Source: Ceratobasidium sp. AG-K (lineage: Eukaryota; Basidiomycota; Agaricomycetes; Cantharellales; Ceratobasidiaceae). From it: a stretch of 64,000 bases of DNA. A program made the position numbers and the translations under genes. Positions 295 to 34,375 of the stretch are shown here, piece by piece. The DNA lies in the NCBI GenBank assembly GCA_037039685.1, contig JAWNGF010000012.1, forward strand, positions 1,240,001-1,304,000, in the 5' to 3' direction. Each line of letters begins with the position of its first letter. Within the stretch, counting starts at the first letter, position 1. The notes under the pieces are model-generated. The model saw only the letters and a program-made list of their open reading frames with translations, searched no databases and was not told the DNA's origin.

Positions 295-3200
295 CTAGTA
301 AACATAGGGAACAATTCTCCACGGCACGATCCGTTTGTAAGTCTCACAGTCCTTACCATACCTGAAATAAGTTTAGTCTAAACCTAGTTCGACTCACGGA
401 GAGATATACTTACTTTTTCGCGCACGCTTGGTCGTCTCGTCTCTGTCGGTGAATCAACAAAACCAGGAAGAATACGGAGTAGAAGTAGGTAATCGGCGCT
501 GCAAAGCCAGTTGGTAGGGACCACAAAGCAGCCATAACCCAGTTGCCCCTAAATTAAATCGTAGGGTTAACCGCGGTCTAGTCACGGAAACACGTTAAAA
601 GCAGCTTACAAATAATTAGGATGCTGGCACAATCCCCACCACCCACTTATCAACAACCTGGTCCCACGTTCGGTCTTGAACAAAGTCAGATCTACAGACA
701 AGTCAGCCTCCAAACTCCAACCCTTCAATAAGCTACACACTCTTTGGGTTCTTTCCGTTTCTGAAATCGTTTTTCTCATTGTTGCTGCCCCTGAAGATCC
801 AGTACCCAAGCGCGTGTACAGCAAAGACCACGCCCGTCCAGAACGGACCAAGCTCAATATGATTGAATGCGAGGTACCGTGCCTGGAGGGAGTATGTTAG
901 GGGTACCCAGGCGATACTACCAATAGACAGCATGAGCCCAAATCCATCCGAGGTGATGTCCATCGTAGTGAGGACAGCTTGCTGAACGACAAGTTAGTAC
1001 TGGACAAAAAATAGGACAATAGCAGTAACTACCACTGTGGACCCCAGACTTCCGGATCGTCCAGGGGCGACCCTCGGATCGTCCAAAAATCCGGGGGAAA
1101 AGTCCGCAGATGTCTGTCGACGGACCCCCGGATTCGATATCCGGAACCTCGGACGGCCCGAATCGCCACCGGGTCCCCGACCTTTCTTCCGGACGTGCAG
1201 GTTACCCTCGGATGGGTTTGCTGGTGGTCGGTCGGCCACCCTCGGACTGTTCGGAAGTTTTAGGGGGGTGTATCGAGTGGAGTGTACACTAGTTCTATTA
1301 GTGATTGTAAATGTAATTACATCTTTTCTAGTCCTAGGGGGTGTCGTATTAGCTGACTGGGACCGCATGATACGCTCGAATAAGTGCGACAAGTATTCAC
1401 ATACCTTGTATTTACTCAGCGCCCGAGCTTCGATCGATAATCCACCACTTGTTGCCGTCGCGAATGCGCCCAATAGCACATTTGATGTTGTCTGCGTCGA
1501 CGACTTCTCCACTTGAAAGCTGACCTTCGTAAGAAACTACAGTGTACTCGTACGAAGTATTGACTTCGGTTCGGGCCTCCAGAATCAACGCCAGCAAAAG
1601 AGTCTGAACGTAGTTGCTGGGGTTGATGGCGGAGTTGGGTGGAATGGGAAGTGCGAAGAGGTGCTGAAGTTGTCCATAAAAGGACTGTAGAATAAAGTCG
1701 GGGGGTGCATTCGGAATACGGGCAAGTCGATCAACCTCGAGCTTGTACTGTTTTATTTTAGAATTGGCTGATTATTCAAGTTGAAAATAAGAATCTTACC
1801 CGAACAAAAGATGCATCGCGCCCGTCCTCTCGTAGCTTATGGTACCCGCGTGCGTGGATCAAATCGCCTCCATTGATGATGCGCATTCGTCCCCATTGCA
1901 TAACAGACGCTGGAACGTACGCCTTGGCTGCTGGAAAGGCGATTTCGTACGCCGTTACTAGGTATTTGGTGATTTTTCAACGCAGCGGCTCTGTTACCGT
2001 CAATTGCTTGGAGCGTGGAGTCAACAGCACGCAAGCGGGGTCTAAATTGTTTCCGGGTGTAAGAAATAATGGAATTAATTGTTGAACTACTTACAGTCTG
2101 GAAGCTGATCCCCCTCGACCGCCTGACCTTCATCTTCAGCATCCCTCGCATCTCTTGGGTGGCGAAGCACGATTGTATCGTGGAGGTCGTACACCTCGCG
2201 AATGACTCGAAGCTGGGCACAGTCTAGGATTTGCCGTGCGATGTTTGCCGAGTAGTACCGCCGGCTTCGGACTGACGCCCCAATGAAGCTGCAGTATCGC
2301 TCCATTGGAAAGGCCCAATACGCCTAGACCGGTCCTAAGAACTCAATCGAGTCAGCGATATGCAATAGGTAATGGACGTTTACCGGGCATGTCTGTAGTC
2401 GATCAGCACTGTATTGGTAGTATATCCTATTTGATAATAAGTTACTGCGCGACGAGTCTTTGTATGCATTCACATACCACTCATAATCCTCAATCCATTT
2501 AGCAAACCCGTTGCATATTGTAGGAATGTCGTCCCTAGAGATAAAACGGCTGATGCACATTTTAACCAAGGTGACAAGGTGGACAAAGTGAGTATAGTAT
2601 GTTCGCTTAGTAAAGCAACGTCGCAGTAAACAAGGGGCAAGTTGAGTTGCAAAAAGCATCCAGGATTTGGCAATAAAGTGGCTGCGCTTATTAAGGTTGG
2701 GAATGCGACATCCAAATACAGAGGGGATTGTGCAGCCCAAATCTTCACATAGATCCCCAACAAGGGCCCACATTACCAAGTCAATCTGGTAGGTTTCTTT
2801 ACCATTGTCAATGCTGTTAAAGTTGTTGGTCCATAATTTGACAAGCTGAGGGATTAAGTTAATCCAGACCATATGCATTACCTTGACAGGGAATGATGCC
2901 AGAATACTGATCAACAAGAGTTTAGCAAGCAAGGTGACACCTTTGACACCATAGGTTGTCGCCAGTCTGGAGCATGCGTGCTTATTTGGTGTTTGGAGTA
3001 CCTTGTACCCTTGCTCCACGGTCTCTGTATGCGTTTGGAGAGGTAAGTCCAAAGGGTTTGTTGTTGTTCTGTTGGGTTGACGCAAGGCACAATACATATG
3101 CATGCCTCCCTTGGCAGTCTGACCGGAAATCGCCTTGTGCATACAGAATTGGCAAAGTAACTTAGCGTTATGACCCAGGAATTCAAGTACCTTGGTGATT

Positions 3201-6200
3201 ACTGGTTTGTTGCCAAAGACCGCCAGAAGATGTGCATGTAGTAAAAAAACCTCTTCATGGAGCATATCAACAGCTTCGACTCCTGTGGCTAATTTGATTA
3301 GTTCGTCGATTAGGGGCTGTAGGAAAGAATTGATGTCCTTAGGGGAATGTGGGCCAGGTATCATGCCAACACATATGATGTTCTCAAGGAGATTTCGTAT
3401 TTTGGGCGGAAAATTGTAGTTTATCAGGATTATTGGCCAACAAGTATCTTTTTGACACTTGAAGGGACAAAGGCCGTTGATCAAAAGGCCAAATGCAAGC
3501 TCCTGGCGGTCCTGAAAGTGATAGTAGGCCTGTTTCTCATTGTTTATTGTCACCTTGGTATGTTTCAGTTTTTTGTATTGTGTGCCAGCAAAAATTTTGT
3601 CTATATTGCCCAATCATTGATAGTTTGCATGGTAATTGAGCTTCTTGCAGGTCAATTTATTACAAAATAGTGCAAGAACTTGGGGAATGGTGGGAACATA
3701 GGAAAATACAGAGTATGGTTGGCTGGCGGGATTCAGTTGAGGGGCTTTGCAGTAAGGGCATTCCTGTAAGTCACCTAGATAGCCGGTATAACAGACGCAA
3801 GAGTTCTTGCAGCAATGATATTTGACAGGTGACAGTGCAGAAAGGGACAGCATCTGTGCACGCACCAATTTAAGCGATTGTAAACTTCCATGGGACTGTT
3901 TGTGGATGAATGCATCTTGCATTGCTTTGTAACTATGTACAGTCGGCTTATGCTGGACTATGAATTTAAATGAAAGTATATTGTCTAAGATATCTGGGGT
4001 AATTGAAAGCAACGCTAAATATTATAAAACTTAGCTAGACTAGTATCAAGCATGCAAAGCAACTCACTGTTCTTTGCTGCATCTAATGTGAACCCTGCCC
4101 GCAGTTGCGCCTTGGGGGAAAGACCGCCCGTTGCTGGTTTATATCCTTTGTTTCCCAGGTTTGATGCGTCGGATCCTGGGTGTCCAACAGTCGATGCTGA
4201 ATCACTGTTGGAGAGGTCGGTTGAGTTCGTTATAGTTTGATTGCCAAACTCTGTATGTGGATGGGCACGCATTACCTGTGCCCAGACAGGTGTCAGATCA
4301 ACTGCCAGTATAGGATCTGGCTCTGGCAGCTTGTAGGTGATAGGGAATGGTGGATCTGGGGGTCCAGGGGAGCTATTGAACATTGGGTGCATGCCCGGCT
4401 CGGACCAAGCAACAGCAGATCCACGACACACGTTGAGCAATTCTCTACTAGATAAACGTCAACAAATGCTCTTGCTGGATTCATGTATATTAGCAAAATA
4501 AATATTAGTTTATAGTCAAGCGGGCTGCTCACCGTATCCTTGCCAGACACTCATCCAAACTGGGACGCTTTTTTCGCCAGATTCCCTGAAGGTGACGCTT
4601 CCGTGTCTCAGTTGTGACTGGCTTAGTGCACCTGCTGCATGGGCAGGGCACTTTCCGTTTTCCCATTGTCACGGCGGAGGGTGTATGCAAGGGAGGCGGA
4701 AATTTTTGGGTTGTGGCAGTGGGTTGCCACTTAAGCACCAGTGGGTGTATATATACAAGCCAGTTCTGTGTGCGCATCCCCCCTTGCTCCCAACCACCCC
4801 CTTGCTCCTGACACCCGTTGTTTGACCGCCTCCAATTGATTCGGCACATTATTTAACTCAAGGTAATTCTCCTTCCTTGTTCTAAATATATGGTTTTTGT
4901 CACTTACTCTGAACCACCATCTACCCCGACATAGCATTCATTTGGCACTTGCCTGCCGAATCCCCCATTCTCAAATTCTTTTGTCATAACTGGTATGTAA
5001 AAGATCTCCTTACATGTTATCTAGTCATTTGACACGCTCTGATGCGTCTGTTCACACATTTATCTTATTTATAGCGCATTTATCATGCCACCGGCAAATC
5101 CTCCCAATGCCGGCGCCACATCAAAGTCTGGCACCAGCAACGGACTTTGCGGTGATGTGATACACGTGGCGAATGGCAGTAAGTATGATCGGTTCTCATC
5201 TCCGATCTCGTGGCTGATCACAATTGGGTCTAGCAACAGTCGAATACATCAGGAACAACACCACCATTGAGATTGTGCGCGCCAACAGCACCGTCGAGAG
5301 GTACCAAATCCTTCCAAAACCCAAGGACCCGACAAAATGCATACTTGAGGAGGAGCTACGGTGCAAGGGTCCCAAAGCCGTCTGGACCCACAGCCAGTAC
5401 CTGGACTTCCAGGTAGGTCCGATTCACTCTGATTTTGGTTAGCGCTAATTTCATCTAGACCAAGGTCCAAACCAATACAACAACCGCACTCAAAGGAAAT
5501 ACAAACATTAAATTGAAGGATTGTCCCTTACAGGCAAGGCTTGATGTCTTCAACGCTGTAAGTCCATTATTTTTGTCATGATCACTTGACAGTCATCTGC
5601 CTTTACAGCTTAAACATGAATACCTGTACTTCTTTCGATTCGCGAACGACTGGGCCGGCCAGGAGCTCATGCGGCGCGTGCTTGAAACAAGCGCAACCAC
5701 AAAAGAAACAAGACTGTCGAGAAACAGGCCGAGGCTGCCGAGCGAAAGGCAAAGGCGAAGGGCAAGCAACCCGTGACTGGTAAGAAGAAGGGCGATTGGG
5801 CTCCCTCGACTGTGACTGGCGCCTCGGATACGCAAGGTAAGTTTTATTCAATCCTCTATTTACATTTTATCGACTCCTGTTTAGCTAACAGAGCTGGCCC
5901 GAGCAACTCCAAGCGCACGGCTACCCCCGGTCCGCCGTCCAAACACCACGAGCCGAACAAAGATGAGGACGACGTGAATAGCAACAAGGAAGTCGAGCGT
6001 CACGAGGTACCCAGTCGCCTCAAGGCGCGTCCCAAGGTGTGTGTGTGAATGCGCCGACAATTTGAAATTGCTATTCTAACCCTAACATGACAGATGCTCA
6101 AGCGCGTCGAGAGCACCGACTCCGAGGCCAATCAAGCGCCTGGCACTGAAAAGCCAGCCTCGCCGGTCACAAGCACCGTTGGACGCACAAGCAGCCCTGG

Positions 6201-20353: not shown

Positions 20354-23300
20354 TTATTTGCGAGGTCTCAGTCCAGTCCTGGTCCCTTTGACTTCGCACT
20401 TTTTCTTGCCTCCTCCTCCAGTAGAGTCGTCTGGGGCACCGCGCTTGTTGTTGGTCTTCACCGGGCTAGCGGCTGGAGCACCTGCGGCGTTAGGTGTGGT
20501 TGGAGGCTTCTTGAATGCAGTCTTGTCCAATTTGAGAGCATAACGGCGGGTATTCAAACGATTGGTCTGTGCCATCAGGCCCATCTTCTCCTTGTTTCCA
20601 TTGCCGAGATCCACGTCACCTAAGGAAAGACAAGTGAGTCTGGAGACGTGAGGAATCGGACGAGCAACCTACGCATTCCGACATCCACTGCAGAAGGGTC
20701 AGCCCAGTTTCAAGTCAATCAAGAATGTGGCTGCTTACAATCTTTGAGAATTTGAGCCGCAGTTGGATCCGCAAACTTCAAGTCCGTCTGGATGATACCG
20801 TCCAACTCCTTGGCCATGGCAAGGCGGTCGTCCTTGATATCATCCATATATCTATCTATATACGGAGTTCGATCAGCAAGTGAAATGCCTAATGTTTAAA
20901 TAGCATTCCTACCCATTATCTCGAGGTAACCCAACCTAGTGTCTGTACCGTCGCTCGACGCTGTTTCCCATTTCGCCCAGTCAGCATCGTCCTTGAGGGC
21001 GTCCGGACGGATGAACGACGACTTGTAACTGTCTATCAGTAGCACTTGGCATCAATATCTTGGGAGGAGGCTCTCTTTGAATTGATATGCTTACTTGGGC
21101 TATCGAACAACGGGCGCATGTCTGGTCGAGGTTAGCATTGACAAATCGTTGAAATAGTAATGTCGGCACTTACTCCTCTCCGAGTTGAGAGCGGTGGCGA
21201 ATTTGGAAATAAATTCGGAATATTCTGGCTGCCTACAAAGGTCCTATTTTATGTTGAATTAGGAGTCTGAAAAGGTCGAAAGGAAAGGGGGTTCTTACTC
21301 TAGCTACTTTTTTACGCTGCGTCTCAGTGAGCTTATTCTTGGCCGCATAAGCCCTCAATTGAAAGCGGAATGCCGCAGCGATCTAAACGCAATGACCCAA
21401 TAGATTCAGCGTATATTAGAGGTGTACATACGCCCTTAACGTACCTCGTCGGCCTCAAGCATGTGGTCACACTAAGCGAGCTATTAGGCATACCAATCAT
21501 GATCGTCAGGAATGTACATACCTGACCTGTACCACTACGTTAGTCAACTGGAACCGAAGCTAGTACAGTACGACTCTTACATGACTTGGGGTTAAGAGGC
21601 ATATTGGTTGCCCCTTTACGAGCGGCCGAGTTGGCCTTCCAATCGGGATGCACGCCCACTGCCGAGCCGGTCGGAGGTTTAGGTCGACAATCGGTGTACT
21701 TGAGCGTTTTGCGCTTATTGCCGTCATTAGGATCCAGCCATTCCATGGGATACAGGTCCGAGTTTGCGTGACACTCAAGCTTATATGCATCGCTCTTTGT
21801 TTTGAGCCCAGAAGCTGGGGTCTTAGGCACAAATGAGCACACGCACTTCAAGGAGAGTGAGACCTTACATCGAAAATGCATGCACCAAGTTTTGGGTTAC
21901 CGGCACGTGGTTCGAGCGAATGAATGGCCCGATCCGAAAAATTCGCCCGGGGACCGTCAATTGTCGCTACAGCATCACTTCGTTCAGCACGACGAGCGAG
22001 GGGAGCCGCAGGGAGAAAGGGTTCAGCAAGGCTCGCAAGGTCCAAAAGGTTGCCAAAGTAGTCGGATTCTTCGCATGAGAGCGCCGAGTCTTGGATGCGG
22101 TCGAGGGCGCGCCCAATACGTCCACGGCCTTGTAAGGCAGTTGGGCTCAGTAGATCATCTACCGACCGAACGTTCTTCGCATCCTGAGCGCCATCGAGCG
22201 CCTTCTCCAGACCACGTGCGATGGACCTAGTGGCACGAGCAGATCTAAACATAGGCATGAAAGCTCTCGCCGCACGAACAGCTCCAGTCACTAGTCCTCC
22301 GAATGGGATAAAACTAAGCAAAGTGAGCACCAAGTCGATAATGAGCTGGATCGCTGCTTTTCGCGCTTGCTCTAAGAGATATTAGTAACACGCTACGATT
22401 ATCTAGGAATAAACAACCTTCAAGTGCGTCATACTGCTCCTGCAGAGCCTTGTCGAGTTTTACTTGCTCAACTGTTTCGAGTCGGGATTGATTAGATGGA
22501 ATCTTTGCGTGGTAATCAGAAGCCACACGTACTATACTGCATTGTAGAATAAAGGGTGTCGTTCCCGGCGACAAGCGTCGTTAGCGCCATGTGAAGTATA
22601 GGTCCCAGATATTCTACGGTTTCTAGCGGGGAGGATGTGGCGTCAATTGCAGTAATCTTGAATTCCTCATATTGGTCCAAATAAGCCTGGATACCGTCCT
22701 TGACGTTCGGGAAGAACTTGTCTGCATCAACCACAAGCACATCGTGCCACTGAGTCCGGCAGCTTTGTTTCGGATCGTACGGTGAGAATCCCTGGGCGTT
22801 TTCGCTCGGATCGTACGGCGCCATGCTGCCGATGTGGTGTCGAGCAGATAATGCTGAGACATTCGCGCTCGGAGCAAGGATCCGTCGGATTCGGCCGGTG
22901 CCATCGTCCTCGAACAGATACGTGTTCTCGATGATAGTTTGGTTCGTCTCCGGTACGGCATCATCGTAATGTAGCTCGAGTGTGGAGTTGGTGAAATTTC
23001 CTGGTAGCTGCCGAGGGAACGAGAAAAGGCAGGTCGACGCTGGATCGAGTTACAACAATCAGCCCGACCTGCATATGAGATGGGCATGCCTAGCACTTAC
23101 GATTGCGACCGACGTAGACATTTCCTATGATAAGCTCTGAGGTGTCGAAGCCAAGTGCATCGGTAAGGTGATTGGAGAATCCACCAGGGTCGGTGAGTCG
23201 CCAGTACACGTCGCTCACATCAGCTCCTCGAGTGTTATGTCCACCAGGGCAAGTATTGTGTGCGAAATTGGACCCGGAATTATAGCTAGTAAAAGTTTTG

Positions 23301-26300
23301 AACGGTTCAGTGCGGAAAATAATGACGAGATACTACTTACGAGCACTCCCAGAAGTCATTTCCTTTCCCGGTCTCGTTTGCAATAACCCAATTCAATGCT
23401 ACAGAAAAACAAGTCAGTATCGGTGTGTTGGGCAAGTTCAGAATGAACTAACCCTTGGTTTCCCATTTCTAACATCAATGGAAGTAAGTTTAATGGTAAT
23501 TGGCTACTGGTGCGGCTCAACGTACCTTGTACAGCTGGAACGAGTCTTCACTGAGGGCACTGAACTTCAGATACTCAAATAGGCTGCTCGCCACGGCATC
23601 TAGCGCTCTGACTGCAAGCAAGATCATCACTTGGTAGTTTAGCACCATCGATAGATTCGGATAATACTCCAGAATCTGCTCAACCGCTTGTTCCTACCGT
23701 GGAGTGGTCAGACATGCACTCATACGATGAATAGTACACTTACCCAGAACTCAGCGCTTACGAGTCCGTCCGAGTTCAATGGTTCACCCACTATCGTACT
23801 GACAATTTCGGCAGCGCTCGGTGCAAGCGCTCCACCTCCCCAAATGGCATTTGTGAGGTCAAAGTTGCGACTATCCTGGTCCATGGAATAAACTGAATTT
23901 TACGATTAGACGAGTTAGGCATCAGCTCCGACTAGATATCCCACCCGAGAGTCCCCCTAGACAGAGCATCGTGGCCGCCCGAGCCTTTTCTACAACGGAT
24001 TCTGGCGTTTCGTGGTCGAACACATATCCAGAGGTTGTAACGAAACGTCCCGCTGAGTTCGCGATCGGCGTCGATTCACCATCAGCATCCAGGTCCATAT
24101 CGGTGAACGTGATACGTGAGTCGATGGAGTAGTAGGGGAAGATCCCTTGTCCCAGGGCGGATGCCGCAATACACTCTGATGTCGATCCTAAGCCTGCTAC
24201 GATGCCGCACCCGTCATTCGTACAGGAGGGATTGGACAACCGTCGGGACCTTCCATGATGTCAGTATTTGTGGCTCTCTGACCTTCACTGAGGTATCCGA
24301 ACCTTCCATAGAATGGTACGCCCATCATGATCTGGCTCCTTGGGAAACCAAGTTTGTGTATGGCGGCGACTGAAGTCGTCATTCGCGAGAGACTATTGGC
24401 ATATTCGAGCGTCTGTTCTCGACGCTGTCAAGCTGGTTCACATTATTTATACAGTCCACTCACTGTTCCGGGGAGATCGTGACTGATGAGACTCATGAAG
24501 TCGACCGCCTTGCCGATGTCTGCGGCCACTGTGTTGACACCAGAGCTTGACCAGAAAGAGTGAGGCGTGGATATAGTGAGGTTGAAACTAGCTGCCCTAA
24601 GCCCGGTCGAAGCACCTTGCACAATGTTCCTACGTGACCACGTTCAGGGGGCAGCAGTGGCCAATTAGAATTCGTACGTACTTCCACTGTGTGGCGCTGA
24701 TGCCATTGGCCCACTCGAGGTCAATCCCGTCCAGACCATAGCTTATATGCGCACGTATTAGTTCCATACTAGCGAACAATCAGTGAGGCTGGTACCTTTG
24801 ACATACGGAGGCTCCAGACGTTCCAAGCTTTGTTCTAGCCGAGGCGCTGGTAGCGATGGCCACAAGATTCGCGGGATCAGCGCCGAGCCCCCAGCCTCCG
24901 ACTATGGCAAAGTTAACTGAGATCGCTATGAATCTCTGGAACGACTTACCAGCAAGATAGACTTTGAGAGACGAGTCTTGGGACTTGAGAGCGGCGACAT
25001 CCCTGAGCAACTGCTGATCCTCGGTGGCGACAGTGATGGTACCATCTCGGGCAAGAGCGCCATATGCAAACTGGAAGGACGTTCAAAATCACAGTAATAA
25101 TACGTTGAAAAACAAAACACCCACAAGGATATGTGTGTAAGCCTGGTGGTCAATCACACTAGGTAAGAACGGATTACACGCTCTGCGAGCGGCACTAGGG
25201 AGCGAAGGTTGACCCTCTGTGTGTATTTGATACGAAGTACTCACGATGCAAAATAGTACCCGGCAACGCGAGGCTATTTATCATTGAATTAGTCTGTATC
25301 AGAAATCTGGACCAGAGTTGACGGGCGTACCACTGTATCACCGCGGCAGAAGTTGTTGCCAGCAATGCCTGAGAAGGTAGCTACGGTGCCCGCCGCTGCA
25401 CTGACATCCTTGAGGAATATTCTGATTGAAATTTCAACTATATCTATATTCTGCTACAAGATATCAAAGACCTACGAGGTATGAGGGTCACTGAGCTCGG
25501 AGTTGGCGCCGTAGGCAGGACTACTTGAGAAATCCACCTGCTCGTGGCTTTGCCAGTCCTTGATTGGAGCTGAGATCGAGTATAAGTGGGGTCCAGTAGT
25601 CCAGTAACTCCAGAAGGGAGAGGGACTCACTTCTATTTTCTAGCGACAGATGAGTGTAGCGAATTCCAGCAGGAGATTGGCTATCCCACCCCATTTGCCA
25701 GATCGATGTCGACAAGCTTCCATCCCGAGCAAAATACTACGCAAACCAAGTTATATTATCAGTACGTCCCCAGCGGTGTGTGGCAACAAGTACGCACAGG
25801 TCGATACTCAACGTACTCTCCTGCATCTACTTGTTGCTTGATCATATAGTTTCGATAGAACACATTGCTGCGATATCTTGTTAGTGTCTAGTTGCCTTGC
25901 GAGAAGTCTATATGCATACCGTGGACCACTAGCGCCGCTCCATTTGCTCGCTTTCTCTCCAGCCCCCCTGTGGTAACACATCTTTCAGTCAAATCCAATC
26001 AAACAAAATAAAAAATATTTGAACTCACCACCAGATTGGGTACCAAGTACCAGCTAGGAAAGACGTGCGTTAGGGAGGTGTGTCGTTATACTACTTTGGA
26101 TCCGTACCCTCCTGGTCACCGCCTTCCCCACCACAGCTCGAACACGATCCTGAGCGGTGCGAATAGGGCACGGAGACATAGTTGAGCTCGAATAGGTTGA
26201 ACCCCTCCCATCCACCGTGTAGCTGTTTAGCTCAGAATCAACTAGACGTCCCGAGGAGAAGCAACGCATACATACGTTCATATCATTACTACGCAAGTGC

Positions 26301-27110
26301 GTTGTCAATATAGAGAGCTCTAAGCATATGAGCGGGACTCACGTCATGTTGTTGAGAATGACCACGTTCCCCATCGCTGATACGACATAGTCGTTAGACG
26401 AGTAACAGGCAACCCCTTGTTTTAATACGACATACCACACCACTGCATTGTAATGTGCCGAAGGTTTCGCATCGTGTTGTTGTAGTACAGGCTATCCCAC
26501 ACTCGGGAGCCACGAAGGTAGCCGTTGCCGCCTAGGAACGTTGCTTAATGTTTGAGGTCAAAATGCATTATCTTACTAAACATACCTTTGCCCTACAAAC
26601 ACATTGTACTTTGTACCTCATGCAATTCCCGAGGAGGCAAAACTCACCTTATTCCATGAGCCTGACAAATCACTTCGTTTAGCAAAGCCAAACTACAGCC
26701 AGCATGACCACCTACCATCGAAATAATTGTCTTGGATCTGAATGTTACGAGCCGCCTATGAAGTTGTCAATATAATGGATATGAGACCCATGGCGTACAC
26801 TGACTTCTGTTGCAACCTATCACGCCATAGTTTCCGTTACTCAAAACAATGCGACAACACAGATTCCAAGTGTAGCTTACGGGATGCGAGCCGGTCATAA
26901 ACGTTTGGATGTTCCGCACCCAACTATCGCGAGCATACCGGAAGACAATGCCATGATGGGCTTGTTCAGGAGCTAAATTCCCGTAGTTTCGGGTAGCTAT
27001 ATCAAACTATAAGCAAGTATGTCGGAAAGATATTTGCATCATTTACCGGACTCAGGGTTAGGCCGTCAATCTCGTGCGTCAGGTAAACATCCTGTGAACC
27101 GAGCGAGCCT
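20354..27110 (-). CDS. 5'-truncated multi-domain GH18 chitinase with toxin-like C-terminal region
   Basis: About 30 small exons. The first surviving exon (DVYLTHEIDGLTLSP, near 27093) follows an intron whose upstream side is replaced by telomeric repeats. The N-terminal part (27.1-25.4 kb) looks like a right-handed beta-helix (GIVFRYARDSWVRNIQ, IQIQDNYFDG, GNGYLRGSRVWDS, GSCSSCGGEGGDQEG). It continues in phase into a GH18 domain (RVAGYYFAS, KVYLA, catalytic DGIDLEW, MSLISHDLPG, IMMGVPFYG) that cuts chitin. A further 900 or so residues include a hydrophobic helix pair near 22340-22290, a 27-nt microexon encoding C-D-H-M-L-E-A-D-E (21462-21436), and a basic tail ending GLRPRK at 20354. The plan resembles chitinase-led killer-toxin subunits of fungi, and toxicity is inferred, not shown. 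No ATG with a signal peptide appears between the beta-helix and GH18 parts, so I treat it as one gene. Confidence 0.65.
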
Positions 27111-27130
27111 CAGTTAACCAGCTTTCTAAC

Positions 27131-27220
27131 CCTAACCTAACCTAACCTAACCTAACCTAACCTAACCTAACCTAACCTAACCTAACCTAACCTAACCTAA
27201 CCTAACCTAACCTAACCTAA
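27131..27220 (+). repeat. Interstitial telomeric array, 18 perfect CCTAA units
   Basis: Eighteen uninterrupted CCTAA pentamers, preceded by a degenerate CTAAC at 27126-27130. The C-rich strand read left to right is what a left chromosome end with its body to the right would show. The unit is a pentamer (TTAGG on the other strand), not the TTAGGG of most fungi. It abuts the truncated PLE reading frame on the right and an intron of the chitinase gene on the left. Confidence 0.95.
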
Positions 27221-27223
27221 CCA

Positions 27224-27915
27224 AAAATACGTCGATGCGGCGTGGGAAGCGGGCCGTGAACTCAAGGCCGCAGAAGCAATGTTTTATCGCGACTGCTTGA
27301 AGCCAGAAGTCTGGTGGCCGAAATGGCTTGAGGTGATCGGCTCTCGGTACGAGCAGATCGCCAAGCACGTTGTCCCTGCTCCTGAGGGGGAGGGCAATGA
27401 CTTGCATATCGCCTATGGAGCTCACCCACTCCGAAAAGCTGAACGGGACGCGCTCATCAAGGACGTCGCAGTCCTTGGCGCTCGGATCATTGAACTTGAG
27501 GAGGCCAAAACCATGGCTGAAAAGTACAAGACCGAGAGGAAAGCAGCGCTAAAGGACGCGGCCGATGTCGAAATGGGAGACGTTGAGGAGGTCACGAGCG
27601 AGGGTGTCAAGGCCCTTATCGCCGCTGAGGTGCGCAAGGCTGTCGCCGGCGCTAAAAAAGTAAGTACATGTCCATACCCTCAATGTAATTGTGCTGAGCT
27701 TGACTCGCATCCAGGTCCCTCCTCCCAAGGGCCCCAAGGTCAAGCCCGGCCCCAAGTCTCTTGCCAAGAAGGGCAAGGTCGGCCACACCGATCCGAAAAC
27801 CGGTCTCGCCGCCCCCCTACACTATGGCCCTGCGCAGAAGAAGTCGCGCGCGAAGGGCAAGGGCAAAGAGCAACCCCCCAAGGCCAGCGGATCCGGCAAC
27901 TCGAAGAAGAAGTAG
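27224..27915 (+). CDS. PLE ORF1, N-terminally truncated basic protein
   Basis: Open from the telomeric junction (YVDAAWEAGRELKAAEAM). The first Met is at 27279. Residues to 27659 form a helical, E/K/A-rich region (ELEEAKTMAEKYKTERK). A 55-nt intron (27660-27714, GTAAGT to CCAG) joins it to a strongly basic tail of K, P and G (KVKPGPKSLAKKGKVG, KKSRAKGKGKE) that stops at 27913-27915. The tail has the strong C/G third-base preference of real coding sequence, unlike the same stretch in the unspliced frame. A nucleic-acid-binding partner of the RT is inferred. Confidence 0.6.
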
Positions 27916-27920
27916 CCGGT

Positions 27921-30167
27921 ATGTCATGGCAATATGAGCATCCCCGTACGTATCCTGACGAAATGCTCTTATTACCATTGCGCGCCGCCATCAGACTGTT
28001 ACTGTCGCGTGTCCCCCTCGAGGTTCGGCGACTTGCTAAATTTAGATCTGGTGTGCATGTTGGCCCCGATGTTGTAGTCCCCCCCTCTGTATATATTCAT
28101 TTATCTGCGGGACTTAAATTTATGTGTTTTTCGCCTTTGAACAAGATGCTTCCTTTAGAAGCATATGATAAGTTCACTAATACCATTAAGTGGAAATATC
28201 ATTTCCAAGGCGAGTTACTTAACCCAAATCCAGATGAATACCATCCTGAATTTGATGATGGTAAGCGATCTAACAAAATTGCACCGTACTCATCAAGACA
28301 GCTAGAGGCTGGACTGGCGAAAGGGCAAGAAGCTATTGAGCGCATGCTCGCTGATATACCCACGTCAGGTCTTCCAAGGGATCACGGCCTTGTGAAGTTA
28401 CAACCAGTCAAAGACTTCTTACTAAACCGCAAGTATTTAGTCTTACCAACGGACAAGAACCTCGGCTCAGCTGTAGTAAGCCGTGAATGGTACCTGGAAA
28501 AATGCGGCGATATTCTTAGGGATAGGACATCATACTCACGTGTGATGTTAACAGAAGTCGATTGCTTGCTTAATGATAAGCGCTCGTTGATTGTCTGGCT
28601 AGCTCGCCACGGGACATGGCCTGGTATTACAGAGCAACAACGAAAGTGGCTTGTACACCGCTTACCAAATGATGAGGTTGACCCATATGATGGTGTCCCT
28701 CGGTTTTATGGAATCCCAAAGATCCATAAGAATCCTTGGAAAATGAGACCCATTGTTCCATGTCATTCGGCTATGCAAAATCCTGCCGCGAAAGTGCTGT
28801 CATTTTTGCTAAAGCCCATCGTGCAGGCGCAACCTTACATCCTTGAAGGTAGTAAGCAACTTGCGATGAGGCTCGATAAGCTGCGTCTTCCCCCTGGGAA
28901 GAAAGTCTGGATTATAAGCGGAGATGTCACCGCTTATTACCCCAATGTCCCTCTTGACAGGGCTAGGGTAGTCACCCAGGCTTTTCTATTTGAACATTAC
29001 TTCCCCGGTGTTGACGCACCGGATATGAATAATGAACAACATAGTAACGCGCTACAAGCATGGGGTGTCATGTTCGATATTGCGAACGACAACCTTGTGA
29101 TGAGATTCCAAGACGACTGGTATGTCCAGCGCAAAGGTCTAGCAATGGGTGTAGCGTCATCACCTGATATTGCAAACCTTTATGGCGCTGAGTCTGAAAC
29201 CCGTTGTATCGAACAACTAGGGGGTTCCGTCCTCTTTTACAATAGATACATCGATGATGTGTTGGCCTTTGTCGTTGCTGATGACTTTTCTGAAGCACAA
29301 AAAATTGCCGACTCTATTATCATCGAGTCTTGTGAAATCGTTTGGTCTGTGAGCAAGACACATGCGATCTTTCTGGATATGCTTATCTATCTGGAACCTG
29401 AGTCTGACCGGGTCCACTATAAGCTGTACAAGAAAGCACAGAACAACCATGAACGTATCCCATGGGCATCTCACCACCCCTTAGACGTTAAGAGGGGGAC
29501 CTTCATTGGTGAAATGACCCGCATGGCTACCCTGTCGTCCAACGTTGGACACTATGAGCGCGCCCTTGAGGGTCTACGAGACCTCTACGTCGCGCGAGGG
29601 TACCCACTGCATATGGTGAACAGTTGGCTGAAGAAATTCGCCACTGCAAGATGGCATAACAGACTTTCACCTCGGGAGGAGGAAGAGTCGGGCGGCTTGC
29701 ACGTCATTAAGACGCTGTTCAACCCAGTATGGGCGTTTGTGAAGATATCTGAGGTGCACCGCGCCATCATGGAAGACTGGGTGGATGAACTCCAACCAGA
29801 ATCAACGGTCTCGCAGCAGGCAACTCTGTGGGATGTGGGGGTGAGGAGGGTAGTGCCCCCCCACAAGGCTAGGCGTAAGCGAAAGGCTGCTCGTGTTGGA
29901 GCTGGTATGACTTTCTCTTCAGAAGTCATCAGCGAGAGTGACTCCGATTTTGCGGAGGAACTAGATCCTCTGCCGTCTAAATGGCGGCAGACTGAACGAC
30001 ACACGAAGGCATCGCGCGCTGATCCTAAGTCTCTGAGTCTTCTCATGAGTCGTAGCATGATCTTAAGTCGTAAGAGGCATTTGTCCCTCGGCGACTTAGC
30101 GGCTACCTGGCGTAAAACGGTGCTTGGTTACATTGAGGACGGTCACGAATTGATTGATTTGGACTGA
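27921..30167 (+). CDS. PLE reverse transcriptase (ORF2)
   Basis: 748 residues from ATG 27921, six bases after the ORF1 stop. If the ORF1 intron is retained the frame stays open from 27279, giving a 962-residue fusion. RT motifs in order are VLPTDKNLGSAVV, RFYGIPKIHKNPWKMRPIV, ISGDVTAYYPNVPL (catalytic D), GLAMGVASSPDIANLYG, YIDDVLAF (catalytic DD), KTHAIFLDMLI, and HHPLDVKRGTFIGEMTRMA. FYGIPKIHK and the HHPL-x-KRG thumb motif are characteristic of Penelope-like elements. The C-terminal 150 residues are K/R/E/D-rich with no GIY-YIG domain. The frame has no stop, so this copy may have been active recently, apart from its truncation. Confidence 0.88.
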   Translation: MSWQYEHPRTYPDEMLLLPLRAAIRLLLSRVPLEVRRLAKFRSGVHVGPDVVVPPSVYIHLSAGLKFMCFSPLNKMLPLEAYDKFTNTIKWKYHFQGELLNPNPDEYHPEFDDGKRSNKIAPYSSRQLEAGLAKGQEAIERMLADIPTSGLPRDHGLVKLQPVKDFLLNRKYLVLPTDKNLGSAVVSREWYLEKCGDILRDRTSYSRVMLTEVDCLLNDKRSLIVWLARHGTWPGITEQQRKWLVHRLPNDEVDPYDGVPRFYGIPKIHKNPWKMRPIVPCHSAMQNPAAKVLSFLLKPIVQAQPYILEGSKQLAMRLDKLRLPPGKKVWIISGDVTAYYPNVPLDRARVVTQAFLFEHYFPGVDAPDMNNEQHSNALQAWGVMFDIANDNLVMRFQDDWYVQRKGLAMGVASSPDIANLYGAESETRCIEQLGGSVLFYNRYIDDVLAFVVADDFSEAQKIADSIIIESCEIVWSVSKTHAIFLDMLIYLEPESDRVHYKLYKKAQNNHERIPWASHHPLDVKRGTFIGEMTRMATLSSNVGHYERALEGLRDLYVARGYPLHMVNSWLKKFATARWHNRLSPREEEESGGLHVIKTLFNPVWAFVKISEVHRAIMEDWVDELQPESTVSQQATLWDVGVRRVVPPHKARRKRKAARVGAGMTFSSEVISESDSDFAEELDPLPSKWRQTERHTKASRADPKSLSLLMSRSMILSRKRHLSLGDLAATWRKTVLGYIEDGHELIDLD

Positions 30168-30242
30168 TTCGCTCAGATATGTCTGCATTCTAGCTTTGGG
30201 TATAATTAAATTATGTGTATTTATATTATATTGGTCTGGTTC

Positions 30243-30294
30243 GAACCCAACCACAACCCTAACTTAACCTAACAATAACCTAACGCTAACTTTG
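30243..30294 (+). repeat. Degenerate telomere-like repeats downstream of the PLE
   Basis: Variants of the CCTAA unit (CCCTAACTTAACCTAAC, then AATAACCTAACGCTAAC) in the same orientation as the 27131-27220 array. They fit an older telomeric tract to which the PLE attached. Confidence 0.7.
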
Positions 30295-31016
30295 GGTTGG
30301 CGTTCAGCTCTGTTGTTTTGTAAGCGTTAGTCATCTGGTATGACAAAGCATTATATAAGACTTACCAATCGGTCACGTGACATGTTAGCGCTGGGCGCTA
30401 AAGGACCCTTGGTAGGGCTCGACGTGGACAAAGGGTCTCGACCCTTGGTTCTGTCGGTCCGACTACTCCGAAGCCCGAACTCCCTGGCTCGGTTCCCCGC
30501 ACTTGTTGGCGGGTTGAACTCCGGGGTCGAGGCTATAAGCGTCCTGTTACAGGCCGGGCCGGTGCCGCTGTGTTTTCCTGCTGCGCTTAGCGCCGGGGTT
30601 TCGCGGGCGCCGTCTGTCAGGTGCCTAGTGACGTGGAACAATTTAGCACACGTGGGCTCGCTTAGGCGGACACGTGTAGCCGAGGAGTGACGTGGCCGGC
30701 TGCCAAGGATTCGTTCCTTTGTACCGTGCCGAATGGCGTGGTCTTGGCTGTTGACACGTGTCAACTTCGGCCGCCGAGATCCATGTTGTCATACTATCAT
30801 TCGCTGATAGGTTATCTCGCTTAAATCGCCAAGCCGGCCGCCGTGCCGCTTAGCGTGGGAGTTCCTTGGCTCCCAGCAGATATATAAACAAGGGGATGAG
30901 CACTGATGAGGTGTCATACCGAAAGCGCTAGTATACGTTGTGTGCTAGCCCTTTGCTTTCATCCCCACTTCGCTCGTGCTCGCTGCGCTTCGCACTCGCT
31001 CCGTTCCATCCCGTTT
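30295..31016 (+). mobile_element. PLE-associated terminal segment (possible pseudo-LTR or older truncated copy)
   Basis: GC-rich non-coding segment between two telomere-like tracts, containing a hammerhead ribozyme at 30892-30966. PLEs carry hammerhead motifs in their terminal pseudo-LTRs (family knowledge), so this is either the 3' pseudo-LTR of the adjacent element or what is left of an earlier insertion. Open frames here lack coding character. A TATA-like ATATATAAA at 30880-30888 lies just upstream of the ribozyme. Confidence 0.5.
30892..30966 (+). ncRNA. Type I hammerhead ribozyme
   Basis: Stem I pairs GGGGATG (30892-30898) and AGCA (30899-30902) with TGCT (30954-30957) and CATCCCC (30960-30966), giving 11 pairs with a two-base UU bulge at 30958-30959. 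The core CTGATGA is at 30903-30909. Stem II is GGT/ACC (30910-30912 with 30918-30920) around loop GTCAT. GAAA is at 30921-30924. Stem III is GCGCTAG (30925-30931) with CTAGCCC (30945-30951), with one C-C mismatch. The cleavage triplet is C-U-U, so the predicted cut is between 30953 and 30954. All invariant core bases are present. It lies on the same strand as the PLE. Confidence 0.85.
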
Positions 31017-31033
31017 CTAACCTAACCTAACCT
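31017..31033 (+). repeat. Short telomeric tract at the CACTA copy B breakpoint
   Basis: CTAA, then two CCTAA units and CCT run straight into the CACTA sequence at 31034, which corresponds to position 4374 of copy A. It has the same orientation as the 18-unit array. It looks like a telomere-healing seam. Confidence 0.75.
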
Positions 31034-34000
31034 AGCTCCCCCGGACCCCCAGATCCACCATTCCCTATCACCTACGAGTTGCCAGAGCCAGATCCTATAC
31101 CGGCAGTTGATCTGACACATGTCTGGGCACAGGTAATGCGTGCCCATCCACATACGGAGTTTGGCGATCGAACTATAACAAACTCAACCAACCTCTCCGA
31201 CAGCGATTCAGCGTCGACTGTTGGACACCCTGGATCCGACGCATCGAACCCGGGAAACGAAGGATATAATCCAGCAACGGGCGGTCTTTCCCCCGAGGCG
31301 TGACTGCGGGCAGGGTTCACATTAGATGCAGCAAAGAACGGTGAGTTGCTTTGCACGCTTGATACTAGTCTAGCTAAGTTTGATAATATTTAGCGTCGCT
31401 TTCAATTACCCCAGATATCTTAGACGATATACTTTCATTTAAATTCATAGTCCAGCATAAGCCGACTGTACGTAGTTACAAAGCAATGCAAGATGCGTTC
31501 ATCCACAAACGGTCCCATGGAAGTTTACGATCGCTTAAATTGGTGCGTGCACAGATGCTGTCCCTTTCTGCACTGTCACCCGTCAAATATCATTGCTGCA
31601 AGAACTCTTGCGTCTGTTATACCGGCTATCTAGGTGACTTACAGGAATGCCCTTACTGCGAAGCCCCTCGACTGAATCCCGCCGGCCAACCATACTCTAT
31701 ATTTTCCTATGTTCCCGCCATTCCCCAAGTTCTTGCACTATTTCGTAATAAATCGACCTGCGAGAAGCTCAATTACCGTGCAAACTATCAACGATCGGGC
31801 GATATAGACGAAATTTTTGCTGGCACACAATACGAAAAACTGAAACGTACCAAGGTGACAATAAACGATGAGAAACAGGCCTACTATCACTTTCAGGACC
31901 GCCGGGAGCTTGCATTTGGCCTTTCGATCGACGGCCTTTGTCCCTTCAAGCGTCGAAAAAATACTTGTTGGCCAATAATCCTGATAAACTACAATTTTCC
32001 GCCCGAAATACGAAATCTCCTTGAGAACATCATATGTGTCGGCGTGATACCTGGCCCACATTCCCCTAAGGACATCAATTCTTTCCTACAGCCCCTAATT
32101 GACGAACTAATCGAATTAGCCACAGGAGTCGAAGCTGTCGATATGCTCCATGAAGAGGTTTTTTTACTACGTGCACATCTTCTGGCGGTCTTTGGCGACA
32201 TACCAGCAATCACCAAGGTACTTGAATTCCTGGGTCATAACGCTAAGTTACCTTGCCGATTCTGTATGCACGAGGCGATTTCCGGCCAGACTGCCAAGGG
32301 AGGCACGCATATGTATTGTCCCTTGCATCGACCCGACGGAACGACAACAAACCCTTTGGACTTACCTCTCCGAACGCATACAGAGACCGTGGAGCAAGGG
32401 TACGAGGTACTCCAAACACCAAATGAGCACGCATGCTCCAGACTGGCGACAACCTATGGTGTCAAAGGTGTCACCTTGCTTGCTAAACTCTCGTCGATCA
32501 GTATTCCGGCATCATTCCCCGTCGAGGTAATGCATATGGTCTGGATTAACTTAATCCCTCAGCTTGTCGAATTATGGACCAACGACTTTAACAGCATCGA
32601 CAATGGTGAAGAAACCTACCAGATTGACTTGGTGATGTGGGCCCTTGTTGGGGATCTATGCGAAAATTCGGGCTGCACGATCCCCTCTGTATTTGGATGT
32701 CGCGTTCCCAACCTTAATAAGCGCAGCCACTTTATTGCCGAATCCTGGATGCTTTTCGCGACTCAACTTGCCCCTTGTTTACTGCGACGTCGCTTTACTA
32801 AGCGAACATACTATACTCACTTTGTCCGCCTCGTCACCTTGGTTAAAATGTGCGTCAGCCATTTTATCTCTAGGGACGACATTCCTACAATATGCAACGG
32901 GTTTGCTAAATGGATTGAGGATTATGAGCGGTATGTGAACGCATACAAAGACTCGTCGCGCAGTAACTTATTATCAAATAGGATATACTACCAATACAGT
33001 GCTGATCGACTACAGACATGCCCGGTAAACGTCCATTACCTATTGCATATTGCCGACTCGATTGAGTTCTTAGGACCGGTCTGGGCGTATTGGGCCTTTC
33101 CAATGGAGCGATACTGCAGCTTCATTGGGGCGTCAGTCCGAAGCCGGCGGTACTACTCGGCAAACATCGCACGGCGAATCCTAGACTGTGCCCAGCTTCG
33201 AGTCATTCGCGAGGTGTACGACCTCCACGATACAATCGTGCTTCGCCACCCAAGAGATGCGAGGGATGCTGAAGATGAAGGTCAGGCGGTCGAGGGGGAT
33301 CAGCTTCCAGACTGTAAGTAGTTCGACAATTAATTCCATTATTTCTTACACCCGGAAACAATTTAGACCCCGCTTGCGTGCTGTTGACTCCACGCTCCGA
33401 GCGATTGACGGTAACAGAGCCGCTGCGTCGAAAAATCGCCAAATACCTAGTAACGGCGTACGAAATCGCCTTTCCAGCAGCCAAGGCGTACGTTCCAGCG
33501 TCGGTTATGCAATGGGGACGAATGCGCATCATCAATGGAGGCGATTTGATCCACGCACGCGGGTACCATAAGCTACGAGAGGACGGGCGCGACGCATCTT
33601 TTGTTCGGGTAAGATTCTTATTTTCAACTTGAATAATCAGCCAATTCTAAAATAAAACAGTACGAGCTCGAGGTTGATCGACTTGCCCGTATTCCGAATG
33701 CACCCCCCGACTTTATTCTACAGTCCTTTTATGGACAACTTCAGCACCTCTTCGCACTTCCCATTCCACCCAACTCCGCCATCAACCCCAGCAACTACGT
33801 TCAGACTCTTTTGCTGGCGTTGATTCTGGAGGCCCGAACCAAAGTCAATACTTCGTACGAGTACACTGTAGTTTCTTACGAAGGTCAGCTTTCAAGTGGA
33901 GAAGTCGTCGACGCGGACAACATCAAATGTGCTATTGGGCGCATTCGCGACAGCAACAAGTGGTGGATTATCGATCGAAGCTCGGGCGCTGAGTAAATAC

Positions 34001-34375
34001 AAGGTATGTGAATACTTGTCGCACTTATTCGAGCGTATCATGCGGTCCCAGTCAGCTAATACGACACCCCCTAGGACTAGAAAAGATGTAATTACATTTA
34101 CAATCACTAATAGAACTAGTGTACACTCCACTCGATACACCCCCCTAAAACTTCCGAACAGTCCGAGGGTGGCCGACCGACCACCAGCAAACCCATCCGA
34201 GGGTAACCTGCACGTCCGGAAGAAAGGTCGGGGACCCGGTGGCGATTCGGGCCGTCCGAGGTTCCGGATATCGAATCCGGGGGTCCGTCGACAGACATCT
34301 GCGGACTTTTCCCCCGGATTTTTGGACGATCCGAGGGTCGCCCCTGGACGATCCGGAAGTCTGGGGTCCACAGTG
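31034..34375 (+). mobile_element. CACTA transposon copy B, truncated at its transposase start side
   Basis: Inverted copy of positions 4374-1033 of copy A, exactly 3,342 bp in both. Every matched reading frame obeys the rule B = 35408 minus A, so there is no net indel. It ends with the intact terminal repeat (GGGGTCCACAGTG to 34375). The other half, with the first transposase exon, the accessory gene and the right terminal repeat, is missing and replaced by telomeric repeats. It cannot transpose on its own. Confidence 0.93.
31036..33996 (+). pseudogene. Tnp2-type transposase, copy B, 5'-truncated
   Basis: Lacks the first exon. It retains a 611-codon open exon (31486-33321) with the Tnp2 core (INYNFPPEIRNLLENIICVG, PGPHSPKDINSFLQPLID, FCMHEAISGQTAKGGTHMYC). 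Further exons follow at about 33365-33608 and 33661-33996 (YELEVDRLARIPNAPP to DRSSGAE). One TGA at 31301-31303 lies in the upstream exon where copy A has CAA, so an ancestral CGA was hit on opposite strands in the two copies. Away from this site its CpG dinucleotides are largely intact, which makes it a good stand-in for the ancestral sequence. Confidence 0.85.

What the first reader, a model, noticed from the sequence alone, without database searches (positions are those of the whole stretch)
27110..34375. Fossil chromosome end: telomere repeats, PLE, telomere repeats, broken CACTA, joined to a broken gene
CCTAA tracts at 27131-27220, 30243-30294 and 31017-31033 all have the same orientation, the one expected if the chromosome body lay to the right. 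The rightmost tract runs without a gap into the interior of CACTA copy B, and the leftmost abuts an intron of the chitinase gene whose upstream exons are gone. The simplest order is: a break inside copy B, healing by telomere addition, one or two PLE additions at the new end, capping with 18 units, then joining of this old end to a second broken end. The window would then record a chromosome fusion or the capture of a telomere.
Basis: partly seen in the sequence, partly recalled or inferred. Interest (0 to 1): 0.9.

Follow-up and report, generated by a model that had tools for sequence, protein, structure and literature searches.

The report
Real telomere, misjoined in the assembly
The run of telomere repeats inside this fungal contig is most likely a present-day chromosome end, capped by a retroelement that adds itself to chromosome tips, which the genome assembly wrongly attached to a copy of a region from the other nucleus, so it is probably not a fossil chromosome fusion.

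Summary
The sequence observation holds: 18 perfect CCTAA units (27131-27220), a 5'-truncated Penelope-like retroelement without a detectable endonuclease (PLE, 27221-31025), and a CACTA transposon cut at 31033, all oriented as a chromosome end with its body to the right. The fusion reading does not hold up well. Of 17 long telomere arrays found in the 53.6-Mb genome, 14 lie inside contigs and 3 at contig ends. The missing 5' part of the chitinase-like gene exists in an unbroken inverted copy on the same contig; homology stops exactly at the array. That copy is 99.85% identical beside the junction and about 90% 12-18 kb away, the pattern of an alternative-haplotype contig. On contig C4 a 53-kb piece between two facing telomeres is collinear with another stretch of C4, with identical ends and a 98% middle. 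Contig C12 carries second copies of both sides. Best reading: a real, extant chromosome end glued blunt to a haplotype contig (0.9). The PLE-plus-telomere cap is known behaviour of endonuclease-deficient PLEs. The middle tract belongs to the PLE. No reads were available; a real rearranged chromosome is unlikely but not excluded.

The parts
20396..27125 (-). 3' part of a chitinase-like gene (relatives in Ceratobasidium and Rhizoctonia); broken, apparently in an intron, at 27125; part of the left-hand (L) segment
   Evidence: the search for homologous proteins; tblastn of P0001-P0006: P0004 from about residue 357 to 994 lies in the window, residues 16 to about 356 lie beyond the break in the unbroken copy (L044, C12:1431953-1433662); intron position; 99.85% inverted copy stops at 27125
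27126..27222 (+). telomere array, 18 perfect CCTAA units at 27131-27220, C-rich strand reading towards the chromosome body on the right
   Evidence: same repeat and length class as contig ends C1 right, C5 left, C15 left (16 units each)
27221..31025 (+). Penelope-like element, 5'-truncated (corresponds to positions 450-4255 of the C1:7649k copy), 99.84% identical to it
27921..30167 (+). reverse transcriptase part of the PLE, 748 aa from the ATG, within an open frame 27216-30167; the frame in the C1:7649k copy is 1123 codons
   Evidence: Pfam RVT_1 E 3.5e-7 and no GIY-YIG hit at E<=10
30243..30294 (+). degenerate telomere-like tract internal to the PLE
   Evidence: alignments of eight other PLE copies span it
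31017..31035 (+). 3' end of the PLE (CTAACCTAACC) plus about one and a half further telomere units, joining CACTA sequence at 31033-31035
   Evidence: comparison of 3' junctions of PLE copies; CACTA homology starts at 31033
31033..34375 (+). CACTA-type (tnp2) transposon fragment, copy B, truncated at its left; right terminus CACAGTG
   Evidence: Pfam Transposase_21 E 2.1e-25; 96.5% to copy A over 3343 bp
1033..4375 (-). homologous stretch of CACTA copy A, which continues beyond the point where copy B stops
   Evidence: window 4400-8384 matches CACTA copies on C15, C10 and C13 directly beside the part shared with copy B
27125..27126 (.). junction judged to be a blunt false join: the unbroken copy reads on into chitinase-like exons, the window reads into CTAACCCTAACC

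Best explanation
The window joins two things that are not adjacent in the organism. From 27126 rightwards is a real, present-day chromosome end: TTAGG repeats, then a 5'-truncated endonuclease-lacking PLE, then a CACTA element and the chromosome body. Mechanism: the chromosome tip was lost or eroded inside the CACTA. PLE RNA, whose 3' end reads CUAACCUAACC, paired with short telomere repeats at the tip and was reverse-transcribed from the chromosome's own 3' end. The cDNA stopped early (5' truncation), and telomerase capped it with about 18 units. Up to 27125 is a contig from the other haplotype (probably the other nucleus of a heterokaryon), which ended where the two haplotypes become nearly identical, and which the assembly placed blunt against the telomere-ended contig carrying its allele. 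Shown: the structure, the equivalent arrangement at a contig end, the unbroken copy, the identity gradient, and similar junctions at other arrays. Inferred: the PLE addition steps (described for the family), that the two copies are haplotypes, and the assembly step (no reads seen).
For: (1) 17 long arrays were found (16 of 13 or more perfect units; one interrupted). Only 3 (C1 right, C5 left, C15 left) are at contig ends, 14 are interior, and terminal and interior arrays are of one size class. (2) The left flank 23090-27125 has an inverted copy at C12:1433663-1437700 (99.85%, 4 mismatches and 2 gap openings in 4038 columns). Homology stops exactly at the array, and the missing chitinase-like exons follow in that copy. 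(3) Identity falls with distance from the junction: 99.75% near 22.1k, 98.75% near 19.6k, 91% near 14.6k, 89% near 9.6k, no match near 0.6k (one 400-bp probe each). (4) The right side of the window has a direct ~99% copy 306 kb further along C12 (3 of 4 probes), so C12 holds second copies of both sides. (5) On C4 the 53-kb piece 4090273-4143378, between two telomeres pointing at each other, is collinear with C4:4348893-4294995: 100% at both ends (262 and 256 bp), 98.0% in the middle at the predicted position. (6) All 14 interior arrays were tested. 13 of 14 outer flanks have a second copy elsewhere, 8 of them at about 100%; the exception is C3:2897653. (7) The right end of contig C1 shows the same telomere-PLE order. 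(8) Rhizoctonia assemblies have 16 chromosomes per haploid set with putative (TTAGG)n ends, and R. solani AG-8 isolates carry two diverged nuclear haplotypes (PMC7884421 and PMC12774589, passages seen).
Against: No reads, Hi-C or assembly metadata were available. The joins carry no N run (window 0 N; the 20 loci 0 N), which is unusual for scaffold joins. Second copies are common in this genome anyway: 8 of 10 control probes have one, a lower bound, two of them dispersed repeats, so their presence alone is not specific to junctions. One interior array (C3:2897653) has no full second copy of its outer flank, and five others have one at only 85-97%. The inverted same-contig geometry of the window holds for only 6 of the 14 interior arrays.
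Confidence: 0.9

Rival explanations
1. One reading: a former chromosome end (PLE plus telomere) really was joined to a second broken end, leaving a fossil telomere inside a chromosome.
For: Clean, same-orientation telomere-PLE-CACTA structure abutting a broken gene with no gap; one-sided junctions are what a telomere-to-break fusion would give; no N at the join.
Against: It would have to have happened at up to 14 interior arrays while 31 of 34 contig ends lack an array of 13 or more perfect units; the contig carries second copies of both flanks; identity rises to about 100% at the junction; the 53-kb C4 piece behaves as a haplotype bubble.
Confidence: 0.05
2. Telomere-primed break-induced replication: the G-overhang of this chromosome end invaded an internal site at C12:1433663 and copied it, producing a real inverted duplication outside the telomere.
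For: Geometry of the window and of 5 other interior arrays (inverted copy on the body side of the same contig, 34-167 kb inside in five of the six and 1.7 Mb in the sixth).
Against: A copied segment should be uniformly similar, not 99.85% at the junction and about 90% at 12-18 kb; the 53-kb C4 case has telomeres facing it from both sides; other arrays have copies in direct orientation or on other contigs.
Confidence: 0.03
3. Ordinary internal insertion of a PLE that carried telomere repeats with it into an internal site.
For: Other PLE copies lie inside contigs with only 0-3 telomere units at their 5' side, e.g. C7:653143 (100% identical, 3 units).
Against: The unbroken copy reads from 27125 straight into chitinase-like exons, not into the CACTA at 31033; the array has the length of terminal arrays.
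Confidence: 0.02

Closest known systems
[quoted passage not shown] fungal forms, of which Coprina is a named group; Gladyshev and Arkhipova 2007, recalled, paper not held; summarised in PMC3846280 and named in PMC6515669, passages seen)
   Same: Reverse transcriptase without a detectable GIY-YIG domain, sits at a contig end with its 3' end towards the body, truncated 5' end followed by telomere repeats, 3' end resembling telomere repeats.
   Different: Nothing essential seen; its end fits the 5-base TTAGG repeat. Placement in the PLE tree was not tested here.
Chimeric contigs from assemblies that retain both haplotypes (haplotigs; general knowledge)
   Same: Second copies of both sides on one contig, copies becoming nearly identical at the break, interior telomeres, contig ends without telomeres.
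   Different: The joins are blunt, with no N run.
Rhizoctonia chromosome ends with putative (TTAGG)n (PMC7884421, passages seen)
   Same: Same 5-base repeat; related organism by protein similarity (6 of 6 chitinase hits are Ceratobasidium or Rhizoctonia, 51-67%).
   Different: In the three long-read assemblies of that paper 32, 16 and 16 scaffolds have repeats at both ends; here 3 of 34 contig ends carry an array of 13 or more perfect units.
Interstitial telomere repeats left by chromosome fusion (as at human 2q13; recalled)
   Same: Telomere repeats inside a contig.
   Different: That signature is head-to-head; no head-to-head pair within 30 bases was found in this genome, and the arrays here are nearly all perfect, not decayed.

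Membership tests
Endonuclease-deficient, telomere-associated PLE | Reverse transcriptase domain | tested here: met
   RVT_1 E 3.5e-7, 30.6 bits against a cut-off of 29.6; PK-x-HK motif also in 118 of the 120 listed of 232 homologs (that it is a PLE hallmark is recalled)
Endonuclease-deficient, telomere-associated PLE | No GIY-YIG endonuclease | tested here: met
   No such Pfam hit at E<=10 in the 748-aa RT or in the 1123-codon frame of the C1:7649k copy; a very diverged domain could be missed
Endonuclease-deficient, telomere-associated PLE | Location at chromosome ends with telomere repeats at the truncated 5' end | tested here: met
   C1 right contig end; 5 of 6 copies at least 99.5% identical lie behind an array of 14 or more units (directly or with 27-374 bp of an element 3' piece between), the sixth (C7:653143) has 3 units; among older copies (92-97%) only C1:9838k of six has a long array
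Endonuclease-deficient, telomere-associated PLE | RT falls in the PLE clade of a tree | not tested
   No tree was built; assignment rests on homolog set, motifs and structure
Fossil chromosome fusion | The join exists in the DNA of the organism | not testable with these tools
   No reads, Hi-C or related assembly; indirect evidence is against
Fossil chromosome fusion | Head-to-head telomere arrays somewhere in the genome | tested here: not met
   0 matches to TTAGGTTAGG N0-30 CCTAACCTAA; not required for a telomere-to-break fusion
Assembly misjoin of haplotypes | Broken flank exists unbroken elsewhere in the same assembly | tested here: met
   13 of 14 interior arrays have a second copy of the outer flank; but 8 of 10 control probes have second copies too
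Assembly misjoin of haplotypes | Identity of the two copies rises to about 100% at the contig end | tested here: met
   window; C4 53-kb piece; C7: 100% over 260 bp at the junction, 99% over 5961 bp, 98.5% about 5.6 kb away. Five interior arrays have a junction copy at only 85-97%
Assembly misjoin of haplotypes | Gap marker or metadata showing a scaffold join | tested here: not met
   No N in the window or in the 20 loci
CACTA (tnp2) transposon | tnp2 transposase and CACTG-type terminus | tested here: met
   Transposase_21 E 2.1e-25; right end ...CACAGTG in copies A and B; left terminus of copy B is missing

The most novel reading that the evidence does not exclude
The interior arrays are real: in one nucleus of this fungus, chromosome ends capped by PLE and telomere have repeatedly been joined to, or have copied by telomere-primed replication, internal segments, giving chromosomes with many buried, undecayed telomeres.
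Probability: 0.06. Interest if true: 0.85.

Novelty: not a real feature. Interest (0 to 1): 0.22.

Why it matters
As stated (a chromosome fusion) it probably does not exist. It matters as a warning: the assembly, and so any synteny, karyotype or gene-loss inference drawn from it, probably contains false joins at up to 14 places that can be found simply by looking for interior (CCTAA)n. The underlying real biology, a fungal telomere capped by an endonuclease-lacking PLE fitted to a 5-base telomere repeat, is a good but ordinary new example of a known behaviour, with near-identical copies at different ends that point to recent activity.

Tried and rejected
Rejected: three separate telomere-addition events. 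The middle tract is PLE-internal and the right tract is mostly PLE 3' end. Rejected: that a second copy of the junction flank proves the artefact by itself. The control shows second copies at 8 of 10 arbitrary places (a lower bound, since 40 of 138 candidates were scored; two of the eight are dispersed repeats). I therefore rely on the identity gradient, the C4 bubble and the telomere census instead.

My first form of the hypothesis was that the terminal 166 kb is collapsed to one copy. It was dropped: one search shows a second copy of the right side at +306 kb. (19.7-kb query) did not list the known 99.8% copy; 38 of 62 candidates were scored, and searches show the copy is there. Rfam search of 26500-31500 for a ribozyme or other RNA: none at E<=1. 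Solved structures: only weak retron RT matches, E about 0.5. Paper searches for interior telomeres as misjoin markers gave one plant paper in the listing (not opened) and none.

Dropped from counts: C3:2897653's flank was left out because a local comparison had shown it to be repetitive; it was then tested. C1:3660829's copy is only 85% and C10:160023's 89%; both are counted as second copies, not as ~100%. The census counts arrays of 13 or more perfect units plus one interrupted array. By my sum these hold 204 of the 211 25-mer matches, so seven matches in shorter arrays are unplaced, and contig ends with short arrays may exist.
Full report
Setting. The window is C12:1240001-1304000 of an unnamed 53.6-Mb genome in 17 contigs. 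All six listed relatives of its chitinase-like gene are Ceratobasidium or Rhizoctonia proteins, at 51-67% identity, so the organism is probably in or near the Ceratobasidiaceae; I do not name it. Rhizoctonia scaffolds are reported to end in putative (TTAGG)n repeats, with 16 chromosomes in two isolates and 32 in a hybrid (PMC7884421, passages seen; its Methods give TTAGGG/CCCTAA instead). In this genome three contig ends carry CCTAA/TTAGG arrays directly, so it is the telomere repeat here. R. solani AG-8 isolates carry two nuclear haplotypes, about 96.8% identical in AG8-1 (PMC12774589, passages seen).

Observation. 27131-27220 is 18 perfect CCTAA units, far beyond chance. The PLE runs from 27221 to 31025. 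It equals positions 450-4255 of a longer copy on C1 and is 99.84% identical to it. It has a 748-aa reverse transcriptase part (27921-30167) with RVT_1 and no GIY-YIG hit, in the window copy or in the 1123-codon frame of the C1:7649k copy. The tract at 30243-30294 is inside the element: alignments of eight other copies span it. The right tract at 31017-31035 begins with CTAACCTAACC, the element's own 3' end; most other copies end in the same or a slightly altered form. CACTA homology starts at 31033. The chitinase-like gene is cut at 27125, apparently inside an intron.

What is real on the right. The four near-full-length PLE copies all lie behind a long CCTAA array on their 5' side, either directly (window) or with 27, 223 or 374 bp of an element 3' piece between (C1:7649k, C1 end, C4:4143k). 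The C4 copy itself stops at position 4041 and lacks the 3' end. The copy at C1:9902k lies at the right end of contig C1, where the array ends three bases before the contig does. Of six copies at least 99.5% identical, five lie behind an array of 14 or more units and one (C7:653143) has three units. Of six older copies (92-97%) only the one at C1:9838k has a long array. This matches the description of endonuclease-deficient PLEs: they prime on exposed chromosome ends, and telomeric repeats are then added to the truncated 5' end (PMC3846280, passages seen). That the end broke inside the CACTA before the PLE arrived is plausible but inferred. The direct copy of this region on C12 starts to match at window 35146 (C12:1581319). 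The 1.0 kb examined to its left has no match to the window, and a 73% CACTA relative in the opposite orientation lies about 4 kb to its left.

What is wrong with the join. A genome-wide search finds 16 arrays of 13 or more perfect units plus one interrupted array at C10:458843. Three lie at contig ends (C1 right, C5 left, C15 left; 16 units each) and 14 are interior. Interior arrays are 14-22 perfect units, apart from the interrupted one. Thus 31 of 34 contig ends lack an array of this size; shorter ones are not excluded (7 of 211 25-mer matches are unplaced). Head-to-head telomere pairs within 30 bases are absent.

The window's left flank has an inverted copy at C12:1433663 upward. A Ceratobasidium theobromae relative (P0004, 995 aa) aligns from residue 16 onwards to that copy, but only from about residue 357 in the window. 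Single 400-bp probes further left give 99.75, 98.75, 91.1 and 89.3% identity and finally no match. A gradient that reaches nearly 100% at the break is what a haplotype contig ending at a near-homozygous stretch looks like; a fusion or a copied segment does not predict it.

The same contig also holds a direct ~99% copy of the right side, 306 kb further on (probes at 45001, 50001 and 55001; the probe at 60001 showed none among the 40 of 138 candidates scored). C12 thus contains second copies of both sides, which one chromosome of one nucleus is not expected to have.

Other junctions. I tested the outer flanks of all 14 interior arrays: the window, nine and four. Thirteen have a second copy covering most of the roughly 260 bp. 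Eight are at about 100% (window, C4:4143k, C1:7649k, C7:190k, C4:4090k, C10:458k, C5:520k, C8:2206k); the others are at 97, 96, 92, 89 and 85%. C3:2897k has only partial 81-82% matches. Six of the 14 show the window's geometry (inverted copy on the body side of the same contig). The others have the copy in direct orientation (e.g. C1:9838k, C5:520k), in a neighbouring piece of the same contig (C4:4090k, C4:2941k) or on C2 (C10:458k, C8:2206k, C10:160k). The clearest case is C4: the 53-kb stretch 4090273-4143378 lies between two telomeres that point at each other. Its two ends are identical to the sequence at C4:4348893 and C4:4294995 (262 and 256 bp), and its middle is 98.0% identical at the predicted collinear place. 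That is a haplotype bubble placed beside the telomere of the contig that carries its allele.

Control and limits. Ten arbitrary 260-bp stretches were searched in the same way; 8 of 10 also have a second copy, a lower bound, two of the eight being dispersed repeats. The assembly therefore seems to retain much of both haplotypes, and a second copy alone proves nothing; the argument rests on the census, the gradient, the bubble and the coexistence of copies. The joins have no N run, which I cannot explain without the assembly history. PMC7884421 describes building Rhizoctonia scaffolds by comparing contigs from several assemblers (passages seen); such merging could leave no gap marker, but I do not know that it was used here. 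No reads were available.

Verdict. Real chromosome end with a PLE cap (about 0.9); false join to a haplotype contig (about 0.9); real fossil fusion (about 0.05). The PLE is a new member of a known kind; the fusion is most likely not a real feature.

Noticed in passing
G000 C1:3660829-7649041: Outward-facing telomere arrays bound a 3.99-Mb stretch of contig C1, possibly one complete chromosome embedded in a 9.9-Mb contig.
   Followed up: no
G000 C10:458843-628446: A 170-kb stretch is bounded by telomere arrays in outward orientation; its right subtelomere is 98.9% identical over 3.4 kb to the left end of C5. A mini-chromosome or further misjoins.
   Followed up: partly
C7:653143-654223 (L030:4144-5224): A 1081-bp PLE piece 100% identical to the full copies lies inside a contig with 3 CCTAA units on its left and 2-3 on its right, next to a tandem satellite also found beside the C11:461k copy: possibly a recent internal insertion at a telomere-like motif.
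   Followed up: partly
C7:190850-190939 (L038) and window 31033: A second telomere-ended stretch also ends in a truncated copy of the same CACTA family, 99% identical, cut 339 bp further in and capped by a 372-bp PLE piece.
   Followed up: partly
L024, L025, L026: The three longer PLE copies start with a 5'-truncated repeat of the element's own 3' end (374, 27 and 223 bp) joined at the same point to the element start, resembling the pseudo-LTR arrangement described for other PLEs.
   Followed up: partly
C12:1421208-1428088: A 75-76% paralog of the chitinase-like gene lies next to its unbroken copy.
   Followed up: no
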